Assembly (NCBI GenBank): GCA_017405345.1
Contig: JAFRAP010000048.1
Span: 1 to 43,631 of the forward strand
Source of the DNA: Candidatus Saccharimonadota bacterium
Lineage (GTDB): Bacteria; Patescibacteriota; Saccharimonadia; Saccharimonadales; Saccharimonadaceae
Length of the DNA: 43,631 bases
Direction of reading: 5' to 3'
The position numbers and the translations under genes are program-made. This document shows, one piece after another, positions 27,571-31,512 of this stretch (within the stretch, counting starts at the first letter, position 1; the number at the start of each line of letters is the position of its first letter). A model generated the notes under the pieces. It saw only the letters and a program-made list of their open reading frames with translations. It did no database searches and was not told the origin of the DNA.

Positions 27571-28557
27571 CTAAATCCCTCTCGGTGGCTCTCCCTCACT
27601 TTTCTCTAGCAGCTTCTTAGACTTAATCTCATACCTTCGCCCATTTACTGGTGACACATAATAATCCTCGTTTAAGAGGTTCACAAACATTGTCAAATCC
27701 TTATCATCCATAATGATAATAGAGCCGTCATCATCCGTCATTAGCTCCAGCTGCATCTCGTCTGCATAATCAATCAGAGCATCCTGTGCCATCTCCTCGG
27801 CAATTTCCATCGCCTGCAGCTTTTTAATTAGCGGCTTGCGGTCTTGCAATAGCGCATTTAAAGTTAGTCCCTCCGCAAAGGATAGCTTATACTTCTCTTC
27901 CAATTCCTTTGCCTTTGCCTCAGCGATCACTTGTGTCTTATAGTCATACTGGAATAAACTTTCAAATTTAGACTGATTAAAGATTACTACATTTTCATCC
28001 ACAATCGCCACTTGGTTATCTTCTGGCATGTGCACAGCCACCTCTGCCGAAAATGGCTCAAAGCTTTCTCCATTCAGCTCCCAAGAGGTTGCTCCCTTCA
28101 GTGCCGCCGATGCCGCAATACCTTTAGCAATGTAAAATACCTTCGTTCCAGACTCTCCTCCCGGATAGGAAAACTTTGCAATAATCCCCTTCACCTTCTT
28201 AAACTCATACTCATTATCAGAAAAGTAGTCAATATCTTTGTACTCGTGCTCAATTAGGTGCAGCAAGGTCTCTGCTCGCCCCACGTTGGCCAAATCTGTC
28301 CGATAAATTACTCTTTCCTCACCATCAGATTTTTCGTATTCACGGCATTCCAGGCCCTTATCCGCTTCTTTTATAATGAAGGAGATCGCCTCATTCATGA
28401 ACATCGCCTTCACCGAGTTAGTCAGCTTATCAGAGTAGCGTACCTTAAATGGTGTGTAATTTTTGTTGAACAAAAATAGTTCACAAGACACATTATTTTT
28501 AATTTCATCCACCTCATTCGCCCATAAAAAGACGTCAAATTTTTCGGCTTCCGCCAT
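27571..28557 (-). CDS. DUF4868 (KwaB-like) protein
   Basis: The 328-residue soluble protein has the layout I associate with DUF4868, the family of KwaB from the Kiwa anti-phage system. There is a variable N-terminal half, then a barrel-like region with KVFYIAKGI and VAIVDENVVIFNQSKFESLFQYD, helices, and an end reading DLTMFVNLLNEDYYVSPVNGRRYE before a lysine-rich tail. KwaB binds DNA and acts with the membrane protein KwaA; no KwaA is present here. The gene lies 21 nt after the CYTH-like gene with a consensus AAGGAGGT, so the two form an operon. The family call is from memory and moderate. Confidence 0.55.
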   Translation of the reverse strand: MAEAEKFDVFLWANEVDEIKNNVSCELFLFNKNYTPFKVRYSDKLTNSVKAMFMNEAISFIIKEADKGLECREYEKSDGEERVIYRTDLANVGRAETLLHLIEHEYKDIDYFSDNEYEFKKVKGIIAKFSYPGGESGTKVFYIAKGIAASAALKGATSWELNGESFEPFSAEVAVHMPEDNQVAIVDENVVIFNQSKFESLFQYDYKTQVIAEAKAKELEEKYKLSFAEGLTLNALLQDRKPLIKKLQAMEIAEEMAQDALIDYADEMQLELMTDDDGSIIIMDDKDLTMFVNLLNEDYYVSPVNGRRYEIKSKKLLEKSEGEPPRGI

Positions 28558-28578
28558 GTTACCTCCTTAATTTTTAAA

Positions 28579-29121
28579 CTATCTCAATTCTGCGTAAGCA
28601 TCTCTCACCAGGGTGGATTTATCCTGTCCTAGCACCTTAAAGGTTCGCTCCAGATCTTCCATCACATCGCTCACCTTATCCTTCTCCTCGTCTAAGTCTG
28701 CCTCTAGCTTGGCAAAATATCCGTCCATTCCCTCAATCTTATCCAGGTACATTACCGTTCCCTCACTCATCACGATCTCGCGCCGCTGATAGCTAATCTC
28801 TGCCTGTGGCTTAAAGCCCAGCTGCATAATGATATTAGCGGCCTCAGCGTAATTCTCCACTACGGTACGGTTCATAATGTCCACTCCACTATCTTCTACG
28901 TGGCGGCGCAAAATCATCACGTATTTTGCCGGCTTATCCACCGCTCGCATCTCTGTGCGTAAGATTAGCCGCGGATAACTGCTGTGACGCTGATAATTCC
29001 GCGGAACATACACGCGATCGTGCAGCCAATACACTGGCCCAAAGTTCATTTCAATCTCATTCAGCTTCCGCTCAAACTCCTGCGGACTCTTCAGCTTGCA
29101 CTTCACAATTACGCGTTTCAT
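28579..29121 (-). CDS. CYTH-like protein (CyaB/ThTPase fold), signature degenerate
   Basis: The 180-residue protein resembles the CYTH triphosphate tunnel fold. It starts with a strand and a PQEFERKLNEI-type helix, then arginine-rich strands (RLILRTEMR, YVMILRRH), then an NYAEAANIIMQLGFKPQAEISYQRR segment shown in part and a C-terminal LDKIEGMDGYFAKLEADL element. The ExExK signature at the N-terminus is replaced by Arg and Ile at the glutamates, so adenylate cyclase or triphosphatase activity is doubtful. Nucleotide or polyphosphate sensing is possible. It is the first gene of a two-gene unit with a DUF4868 gene. Confidence 0.6.
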   Translation of the reverse strand: MKRVIVKCKLKSPQEFERKLNEIEMNFGPVYWLHDRVYVPRNYQRHSSYPRLILRTEMRAVDKPAKYVMILRRHVEDSGVDIMNRTVVENYAEAANIIMQLGFKPQAEISYQRREIVMSEGTVMYLDKIEGMDGYFAKLEADLDEEKDKVSDVMEDLERTFKVLGQDKSTLVRDAYAELR

Positions 29122-29128
29122 TCCCCTT

Positions 29129-29137
29129 ATTATACCA
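29129..29137 (-). promoter_or_regulatory. extended -10 of the CYTH/DUF4868 operon
   Basis: Minus-strand TGGTATAAT with 7 nt to the ATG. It separates this two-gene unit from rnhA upstream. Confidence 0.7.
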
Positions 29138-29160
29138 CACTCACCCCAGTTTCACAAGGC

Positions 29161-29598
29161 TCACGCGTGAATCTGCCCTCGCCTGGCTCTCTTTGCCCAT
29201 TCGTCCGCCGCCTCATTCAGTGCCGTCCCCACGTGCCCTCGCGTCCACTCTAGCCGCACATTCCCATGCATATACAGTTTATACGCCTCTTTTACCAAAT
29301 CCAGATTTTTTATTTCCCCACCTTTTTTCTTCCAGCCGCTCTGCTGCCAAGCTGGAGCCCACTTAGTCAATACATTTATCCAAAACTCCGAGTCAGTGTT
29401 TATCACGCATTCTTCCCCATCTGCATACTTCATCGCGGCAATCAGCGCCTTCCCTTCCATCCGGATATTACTAGATTGCTCCTCCTGCCCCCACGCCACC
29501 GGCTTATAAGTTCGCCGCTCGGCGTATTCTTCTAACACCGCAAATCCTCCCGGCCCCGGATTAGGATGCGCACTCCCATCTGTCCATAAAACTTTCAT
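29161..29598 (-). CDS. rnhA: ribonuclease HI
   Basis: It degrades RNA in RNA-DNA hybrids. The 145-residue protein carries the catalytic set: D in WTDGSAHPNPGPGG, E in RMEGKALIAA, D in NTDSEFWI and the terminal GHVGTALNEAADEWA with His and Asp. ATG 29598 (MKVLWTDGSA) is chosen because TATAAT ends 6 nt upstream; the ATG at 29613 lies inside the promoter. The protein has no N-terminal hybrid-binding domain. Confidence 0.93.
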   Translation of the reverse strand: MKVLWTDGSAHPNPGPGGFAVLEEYAERRTYKPVAWGQEEQSSNIRMEGKALIAAMKYADGEECVINTDSEFWINVLTKWAPAWQQSGWKKKGGEIKNLDLVKEAYKLYMHGNVRLEWTRGHVGTALNEAADEWAKRARRGQIHA

Positions 29599-29604
29599 AA
29601 TTTT

Positions 29605-29610
29605 ATTATA
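29605..29610 (-). promoter_or_regulatory. -10 of rnhA
   Basis: Consensus TATAAT on the minus strand, 6 nt before the ATG, predicting a leaderless mRNA. Upstream bases give TTG directly next to the hexamer, so the TGn extension is imperfect. Confidence 0.65.
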
Positions 29611-29635
29611 CAATAACTTTATTCGCTATTGTCTT

Positions 29636-30042: not shown

Positions 30043-31512
30043 ATGTCTAAATCCGCTAAAAAGCCCGGCCCTAACTTACAGCACGCTATTGATTTTGCCA
30101 CCAACGCCCACCAGGGCCAAAAGCGCCAATCCGGCGACGATTACATCTCCCACCCTCTTGCAGTCATGCAAATTCTAGAAGATTGGCGCATGGATGACGA
30201 TACCATCGTGGCCGGTGTTCTACACGACGTTCTAGAAGACACCCCCATCACTCTAGACGATTTAAAGACCGAATTTGGTGAATCCGTAGCCTTCCTAGTA
30301 GATGGCGTCACTAAGCTCGGCCGCACTCGTTCTGGCATGCGCGATTTAGACACTTACCTTCCCAGCACCAAGGATAACCTATTACGGCTACTAGTTGCCA
30401 CCGGTACCGACATCCGTGTCCTCATCATCAAGCTAGCAGACCGTCTGCATAATCTCCGCACTCTCTCTGCTTTGCCTCCAGACAAGCAAAAAAAGATTGC
30501 CAAAGAGTCCCTGGAGATTTTTGCACCCCTGGCAGACCGTCTTAATATGGGGCGCCTGCGCGTAGAGATGTCCGATATTGCCTTTTCTTACGTTAACCCA
30601 AAGCGCTACCAAGAACTCAGTAATCTCATTGATAAATACAATCAATCCGCCGAAAAATCCATGAAGAAGGTAGAAAAAGAAGTAGCAGAATTACTCGGTC
30701 GTGAAAAAATTAAGTTTTATATCACCGGCCGCATTAAATCCGTCTATTCTCTCCATAAAAAACTCCTTAAGCACTCCGGAAACATGGGAGAGATTTACGA
30801 TCTCACCGCCCTGCGCGTCATCGTAGACGACATCACCGATTGCTATCTTGCCCTCGGCCTAATTCACTCGCTTTACACCCCCATGTCTGGCCGCATTAAA
30901 GATTATATTGCCGTTCCCAAGCAAAACGGCTATCAATCTATCCACACCACTGTTATTACCCCAGACAAGCGCATCGTAGAGTTTCAGATCCGCACGCGTG
31001 AAATGCACGAGTACGCCGAGCGCGGTTTAGCCGCCAGCTTCTATTATAACGAGCAAAAACTCACAGAAAATTACCGCACCGGCAAGATTCAACACCTGCC
31101 CACTTCCCTACTTTGGATTACCGAGCTTCAGTCCACCGCTGCTAAGCTTCGCGCCGGCAAAAAAGTTGACTTAAAAAAGCTCAAATTAAATTTGTTCGCC
31201 GACAAAATCTTTGTTTACACCCCCAAGGGAGACATCATAGACTTGCCCAAAGGCTCTCTACCTCTAGATTTCGCTTACCGCCTTCACTCTGAGATTGGTG
31301 GCCACGTTGCCGGCGTAAAAATTAACGGCAAGATGTCCAGCCTGAACAAAAAACTAGAACACGGTGACGTAGTAGAAATTCTCACCTCTAAGAAACAGAC
31401 CGCCAAAGCTTCCTGGCTAGATAAGGTCATCACCCCTCACGCTCGCGGCAAGTTAAAGAGTCAGCTCGCTAAGCTCCCCCAAAAAATCATCAAGCCCCCC
31501 AAGAAAAAATAA
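30043..31512 (+). CDS. relA: bifunctional (p)ppGpp synthetase/hydrolase, no ACT domain
   Basis: A RelA/SpoT-type alarmone enzyme of 489 residues. The N-terminal HD hydrolase is probably active (ISHPLAV, VLHDVLEDTP). The synthetase domain has TALRVIVDD and GRIKDYIAVPKQNGYQSIH. A TGS domain follows (IFVYTPKGDIIDLPKGS, then LEHGDVVEILTS). The protein stops soon after TGS, so the zinc-finger and ACT domains of 700-750-residue long RelA/SpoT proteins are missing and ribosome sensing may differ. Only 2 nt separate its stop from the convergent parB stop. Confidence 0.92.
   Translation: MSKSAKKPGPNLQHAIDFATNAHQGQKRQSGDDYISHPLAVMQILEDWRMDDDTIVAGVLHDVLEDTPITLDDLKTEFGESVAFLVDGVTKLGRTRSGMRDLDTYLPSTKDNLLRLLVATGTDIRVLIIKLADRLHNLRTLSALPPDKQKKIAKESLEIFAPLADRLNMGRLRVEMSDIAFSYVNPKRYQELSNLIDKYNQSAEKSMKKVEKEVAELLGREKIKFYITGRIKSVYSLHKKLLKHSGNMGEIYDLTALRVIVDDITDCYLALGLIHSLYTPMSGRIKDYIAVPKQNGYQSIHTTVITPDKRIVEFQIRTREMHEYAERGLAASFYYNEQKLTENYRTGKIQHLPTSLLWITELQSTAAKLRAGKKVDLKKLKLNLFADKIFVYTPKGDIIDLPKGSLPLDFAYRLHSEIGGHVAGVKINGKMSSLNKKLEHGDVVEILTSKKQTAKASWLDKVITPHARGKLKSQLAKLPQKIIKPPKKK

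What the first reader, a model, noticed from the sequence alone, without database searches (positions are those of the whole stretch)
27571..29121. CYTH-like plus DUF4868 (KwaB-like) two-gene unit
DUF4868 is the family of KwaB from the Kiwa anti-phage system, where it works with the membrane protein KwaA. Here the operon partner is a CYTH-like protein whose ExExK signature is degenerate, and no KwaA is present. A nucleotide-sensing CYTH protein coupled to a DUF4868 effector would be a new pairing. The unit has its own extended -10 promoter and internal Shine-Dalgarno. The housekeeping surroundings also allow a non-defence role.
Basis: partly seen in the sequence, partly recalled or inferred. 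Interest (0 to 1): 0.72.

Follow-up and report, generated by a model that had tools for sequence, protein, structure and literature searches.

The report
Lineage-core stand-alone KwaB-like protein
A relative of the anti-phage protein KwaB is here an old, strongly conserved chromosomal gene of Saccharibacteria that works without its usual membrane partner, so it probably does routine DNA work; the neighbouring CYTH-like protein is a metal-site-less pseudoenzyme that is only loosely linked to it.

Summary
Both genes are real and correctly identified. The 328-aa protein has a KwaB fold (Pfam KwaB above cut-off; KwaB crystal structure Z 16.7), and no KwaA is nearby. The 180-aa protein has a CYTH/triphosphate-tunnel fold. 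The proposed coupled two-gene defence unit is not supported. The KwaB-like gene is present, usually single-copy, in 94 of 105 good genomes of its family and 107 of 192 of its order. It is vertically inherited (distances track MraW) and under stronger purifying selection than mraW. KwaA occurs in 2 of 247 genomes of the order, and both carry an additional, divergent KwaB beside it, i.e. a separate true Kiwa. CYTH is not a fixed partner: in the window's genus it lies convergent to KwaB in 62 of 82 loci and upstream on the same strand in only 12. It also persists in two genomes without KwaB. Outside the genus, the most constant neighbour of KwaB is a Pif1-type helicase. The CYTH protein has lost both ExExK glutamates and the otherwise invariant metal-1 glutamate (now Lys, 82 of 82). 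Best reading: a lineage-core, KwaA-free KwaB homologue, probably a nucleoid/DNA-transaction protein. DNA binding is inferred from KwaB, not shown. Stand-alone immunity is not excluded.

The parts
27571..28557 (-). KwaB-family (PF16162/DUF4868) protein, 328 aa, stand-alone (no KwaA)
28579..29121 (-). CYTH/triphosphate-tunnel-fold protein, 180 aa, predicted pseudoenzyme (E3, E5, E138 of the metal sites replaced by R, I, K)
29129..29157 (-). sigma-70-like promoter with extended -10 (TTGTGA-17-TATAAT, TGG before), 7 nt before the CYTH ATG, so a leaderless mRNA is likely
   Evidence: consensus match only
28562..28568 (-). Shine-Dalgarno AAGGAGG upstream of the KwaB-like ATG
   Evidence: sequence
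29161..29613 (-). RNase HI gene directly upstream of CYTH; this RNase H-CYTH order is kept in 9 of the 12 loci that have CYTH upstream of KwaB

Best explanation
The 328-aa protein is a KwaB-fold protein that is a vertically inherited, normally single-copy chromosomal gene of Saccharibacteria (shown). It acts without KwaA (shown by absence) and without an obligate partner encoded next door (shown by rearrangement and by incomplete co-occurrence). Most likely it is a cytosolic DNA-binding protein, probably dimeric like KwaB, that coats or structures chromosomal DNA or modulates replication, transcription or topology in the way nucleoid-associated proteins do (inferred). Kiwa would be the defence version of the same DNA-binding fold, in which KwaA brings KwaB to the membrane. 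The neighbouring CYTH-fold protein is a separate conserved pseudoenzyme. Its tunnel has lost both metal sites but kept the basic residues, so it probably binds a polyanion such as a triphosphate, polyphosphate or a nucleotide without turning it over (inferred).
For: KwaB fold over the full length. Family-wide occurrence, 94/105 good genomes; order 107/192; outside the order only two weak hits in a 287-genome phylum sample. KwaA in 2/247 genomes, and only beside a second, divergent KwaB: G054, 22% identical to the window protein, and G121, next to type I restriction genes. Pairwise identities of KwaB track MraW (Spearman 0.905) and other dcw-region proteins. Within the genus KwaB is 83.5% identical on average, MraW 68%, CYTH 60%; dN/dS on the same pairs 0.010 for KwaB against 0.081 for MraW. 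No relatives on phage records or viral contigs. Surroundings are housekeeping: dcw cluster, adk, map, rpsU, RNase HI, RelA/SpoT, ParAB. Outside the genus a Pif1-type helicase lies within the 13-kb locus on the same strand in 35/50 loci, under 300 bp away in 16. KwaB is reported to bind DNA without cutting it and to block replication and late transcription (review PMC12904381). The only non-KwaB structural neighbour above Z 4 is the E. coli nucleoid protein YejK, Z 5.2 over 132 residues; a YejK homologue, StaR, regulates topoisomerase I (PMC10053502).
Against: DNA binding has not been tested, and the protein is acidic (pI 4.65; family mean 4.8), although the true Kiwa KwaB of G054 is acidic too (pI 4.9). 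The YejK match is in the range that can mean only a common arrangement, and there is no profile similarity to NA37. Pif1 is absent from the window's genus while KwaB stays, so Pif1 is not an obligate partner. The gene is missing from several genera and families of the order, so it is not universally required.
Confidence: 0.5

Rival explanations
1. Stand-alone innate immunity: the KwaB-like protein binds incoming phage or plasmid DNA directly and blocks its replication, without KwaA, as a fixed lineage-wide barrier.
For: KwaB is the effector that binds DNA in Kiwa (PMC12904381); family membership above the Pfam cut-off; dispensable in some lineages.
Against: Vertical inheritance, near-fixed presence, no mobile or defence-island context, and stronger purifying selection than mraW are unlike an arms-race gene; KwaA, needed for Kiwa defence, is absent.
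Confidence: 0.2
2. The KwaB fold has been recruited to a non-DNA role in this lineage, for example RNA, ribosome or protein binding.
For: The protein is acidic; the profile match to solved KwaB is weak and confined to the C-terminal half; it falls far below the NCBIfam KwaB equivalog cut-off, 42 against 200 bits; one adjacent gene in the window is ribosomal protein S21.
Against: Full-length structural match to KwaB; S21 is not among the recurrent neighbours.
Confidence: 0.22
3. One reading: CYTH senses a nucleotide and controls the KwaB-like effector as a two-gene defence unit.
For: Same-strand order, 21-nt gap, promoter upstream of CYTH and SD before KwaB in the window. The two genes stay within 1 kb of each other in most loci of the genus. 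All 27 sampled genomes of the genus have both.
Against: Convergent in 62 of 82 loci, same-strand in 12. KwaB has its own TGnTATAAT in 6 of those 12. CYTH sits directly behind RNase HI in 9 of 12. The degenerate CYTH occurs without KwaB in G030 and G082. CYTH and KwaB lie on different contigs or far apart in genus g11 and in G105. CYTH evolves much faster than KwaB.
Confidence: 0.06

Closest known systems
KwaB of the Kiwa system (PF16162, DUF4868)
   Same: Fold over the full length (Z 16.7), similar length, shared C-terminal motif (DDY..S..(T)...Y), no nuclease family matched
   Different: No KwaA; core, vertical, single-copy, strongly conserved; about 15% identity to solved KwaB; far below the NCBIfam KwaB equivalog cut-off
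YejK/NdpA nucleoid-associated protein (NA37, PF04245)
   Same: Similar arrangement of the N-terminal domain (Z 5.2, residues 21-204); similar size; chromosomal gene
   Different: No sequence or profile similarity; NA37 itself absent from 61 sampled genomes of the order
CYTH/triphosphate tunnel metalloenzymes (CyaB, ThTPase, SaTTM)
   Same: Eight-stranded tunnel fold, K of ExExK, the other tunnel K/R residues, D127 and E140
   Different: Both ExExK glutamates and the metal-1 glutamate of the ExE motif replaced (K/R, I/V/T, K), in 82 of 82 rows at position 138

Membership tests
Kiwa defence system | KwaB-family protein | tested here: met
   PF16162 above cut-off; KwaB structure Z 16.7
Kiwa defence system | KwaA membrane partner encoded next to KwaB | tested here: not met
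   No KwaA in G000; 2/247 genomes of the order, only beside a second KwaB
Kiwa defence system | patchy, mobile or defence-island distribution | tested here: not met
   94/105 genomes of the family, vertical, housekeeping context
Kiwa defence system | protects against phage | not testable with these tools
   needs a phage challenge
NCBIfam KwaB equivalog NF041623 | score of 200 bits or more | tested here: not met
   42.1 bits
NA37/YejK nucleoid-associated proteins | NA37 sequence profile | tested here: not met
   No Pfam NA37 match; hhalign probability 0.1%; no NA37 in G000
NA37/YejK nucleoid-associated proteins | shared fold of the N-terminal domain | tested here: inconclusive
   Z 5.2, 132 residues, rmsd 4.7
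CYTH/TTM superfamily (fold) | triphosphate-tunnel fold | tested here: met
   Foldseek E 2e-11, TM 0.81; profile to PDB E 3e-16
Pfam CYTH PF01928 | gathering score 23.2 bits | tested here: not met
   22.2 bits for the window protein, narrowly below
Catalytic CYTH enzymes | N-terminal ExExK | tested here: not met
   RxIxK; Glu replaced at both positions throughout the clade
Catalytic CYTH enzymes | metal-1 Glu of the C-terminal ExE motif, invariant in characterised TTMs (PMC4641920, PMC8233210) | tested here: not met
   K138 in 82/82 rows; K or R in the other sampled members of the degenerate clade outside the genus

The most novel reading that the evidence does not exclude
The DNA-binding KwaB fold is not originally or only a defence effector. 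In Saccharibacteria it is a core, KwaA-free chromosome-organising protein, so that Kiwa and this family are a defence branch and a housekeeping branch of one fold (with YejK possibly a third). Beside it lies a clade-wide metal-free TTM pseudoenzyme that acts as a polyanion sensor or scaffold.
Probability: 0.35. Interest if true: 0.72.

Novelty: new variant of a known kind. Interest (0 to 1): 0.5.

Why it matters
It shows that annotation pipelines could call Kiwa components in hundreds of Saccharibacteria that carry no Kiwa, and that true Kiwa can be told apart there by KwaA and by a second, divergent KwaB. It points to a housekeeping counterpart of an anti-phage DNA-binding protein in ultrasmall epibiotic bacteria, testable in cultured Saccharibacteria with existing genetics. 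It also documents a conserved triphosphate-tunnel protein without either metal site.

Tried and rejected
Two-gene operon as a conserved unit: rejected from synteny and promoter data. Missed KwaA: rejected. Pif1 helicase as obligate partner: rejected, since Pif1 is absent from the window's genus while KwaB remains; its linkage elsewhere is real. YejK homology: no profile support. The KwaB family on plasmids, phages or viral contigs as evidence for mobility: no relatives found with the window protein (phages) or the profile (viral contigs); the G054 Kiwa KwaB gave no plasmid match either. The primary Kiwa paper (PMC12348683) is not held, so KwaB mechanism is taken from a review. Essentiality in the published Saccharibacteria transposon data could not be read: the main text of PMC10633639 does not name the gene and supplements are not available here.

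Full report
What is there. The window (Candidatus Saccharibacteria by its nearest named relatives; contig C11 of a 0.6-Mb genome) carries on the minus strand RNase HI, a 180-aa CYTH-like gene (28579-29121), a 328-aa KwaB-like gene (27571-28557) and ribosomal protein S21, inside a housekeeping region: mraW, ftsA, ftsZ, map, adk, relA/spoT, parB, parA. The 328-aa protein passes the Pfam KwaB cut-off (36.7 against 26.3 bits), matches PADLOC KwaB over residues 18-320 and is the only such gene in the genome. Its AlphaFold model (mean pLDDT 88) matches the solved KwaB structures over the full length (Foldseek E 1e-12; VIA Z 15.7-16.7, 281-291 residues, 15-16% identity). The overall rmsd is 12-13 A at this Z, which I take to mean that the two domains are placed differently in the model. 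The CYTH-like protein is a triphosphate-tunnel fold (model pLDDT 95; Foldseek E 2e-11 to 1e-9 to class IV cyclases and related proteins; profile to PDB E 3e-16).

It is a lineage-core gene, not a mobile defence gene. In the window's family 126 of 151 genomes have the Pfam match, 94 of 105 good ones, in 49 of 61 genera, nearly always one copy. With a family profile, 107 of 192 good genomes of the order have it, at E 1e-121 or better for the core copies; 17 Pfam-negative genomes stay negative, so there are true losses. Outside the order only two weak matches appear in the phylum sample. Protein distances track those of MraW (Spearman 0.905) and other dcw-region proteins. In an unselected set of ten genomes of the genus, KwaB-like is 83.5% identical on average against 68% for MraW, 59.5% for the CYTH protein and 80.5% for another dcw-region protein. 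On shared genome pairs dN/dS is 0.010 for KwaB-like and 0.081 for MraW (a simple Nei-Gojobori count on few pairs, partly from loci picked by KwaB similarity). No relative of it was found among phage records or viral contigs.

True Kiwa is separate. A KwaA profile finds only 2 of 247 genomes of the order. Both, G054 and G121, carry a second, divergent KwaB next to KwaA (L055 5483-6980; L230 5835-7287, beside a type I restriction enzyme). The extra KwaB of G054 is 22% identical to the window protein, while its core KwaB is 50% identical. The core gene therefore stands alone even where Kiwa is present.

The pair is not a unit. In 82 loci (window, L064 of a second genus, nine relatives and the genome-contig loci; a few assemblies are represented twice) the CYTH gene is convergent with KwaB and within 1 kb in 62, upstream on the same strand in 12, and far in 8 (first seen). 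In the 12 same-strand loci KwaB has its own TGnTATAAT within 60 nt in 6, and CYTH sits directly behind RNase HI in 9; only the window has such a promoter before CYTH among the 12. The window-like order appears also in L064 of another genus, so it is probably older than the convergent one (inference). Outside the genus the CYTH relative is absent, distant or unlinked in most KwaB genomes, and the degenerate CYTH exists in G030 (95% complete) and G082 without any KwaB. What does recur beside KwaB outside the genus is a Pif1-type helicase: 35 of 50 loci, always on the same strand, less than 300 bp away in 16. But Pif1 is itself missing in the window's genus, so it too is no obligate partner.

The CYTH protein is a conserved pseudoenzyme. 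Characterised TTMs use the two glutamates of ExExK and the glutamates of a C-terminal ExE motif to hold two metals, and the metal-1 glutamate is described as invariant (PMC4641920, PMC8233210). In the window the residues are R3, I5, K7 and K138, E140. Among 82 rows position 3 is K or R in 78, position 5 never E, position 138 K in all 82, while K7, R55, K/R72, R73, R113, D127 and E140 are kept. The same change is seen in genera g2, g10, g11, g56, g30 and g40, while more distant relatives of the order keep EEK and E138. The own genome also has a second CYTH protein with a largely intact start (EIEAQ) on contig C61. A metal-independent polyanion binder is the natural inference; it has not been tested.

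How it most likely works. KwaB is described as a DNA-binding, non-cleaving effector that stops replication and late transcription when KwaA brings it to the injection site (PMC12904381). A protein of that fold without KwaA, fixed in a lineage under strong purifying selection and placed among replication and division genes, is most simply a chromosomal DNA-binding protein of the nucleoid-associated kind. The only other structure above Z 4 is YejK, an E. coli nucleoid protein (Z 5.2), whose homologue StaR activates topoisomerase I (PMC10053502); this is suggestive only, since no profile similarity exists and Z around 5 can be an accident of arrangement. Shown: fold, distribution, vertical inheritance, selection, absence of KwaA, lack of a fixed partner. 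Inferred: DNA binding, dimer, nucleoid role. Stand-alone immunity and a non-DNA role remain open.

Verdict. Observation confirmed; the coupled CYTH-KwaB defence unit is not supported; the real finding is a KwaA-free, lineage-core branch of the KwaB family and, beside it, a clade-wide TTM pseudoenzyme.

Noticed in passing
window 29121-29134 and loci L064, L076, L079, L109: Extended -10 boxes (TGnTATAAT) lie 6-7 nt before the start codon of CYTH or KwaB, too close for a leader, so leaderless mRNAs look common here; TGnTATAAT lies within 60 nt upstream in 71/141 KwaB and 50/85 CYTH genes.
   Followed up: partly
L055 5483-6980 and L230 5835-7287: Bona fide Kiwa (KwaA+KwaB) in two Saccharibacteria genomes, one beside a type I restriction system, in addition to the core KwaB.
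   Followed up: yes
window 28579-29121 and relatives: A triphosphate-tunnel pseudoenzyme clade with Lys in place of the metal-1 glutamate, conserved across seven genera.
   Followed up: partly
genus of the window (G000, G001, G062 and others): The Pif1-type helicase that neighbours KwaB elsewhere in the family is absent from the window's genus at E 1e-30.
   Followed up: partly
L232 197-826 (own genome, contig C61): A second CYTH protein with a largely intact ExExK (EIEAQ) start in the same genome.
   Followed up: no
window 30043-31512: A RelA/SpoT-type (p)ppGpp enzyme is divergent to the RNase HI-CYTH-KwaB run; this order recurs in L064, L080, L107 and L127.
   Followed up: no
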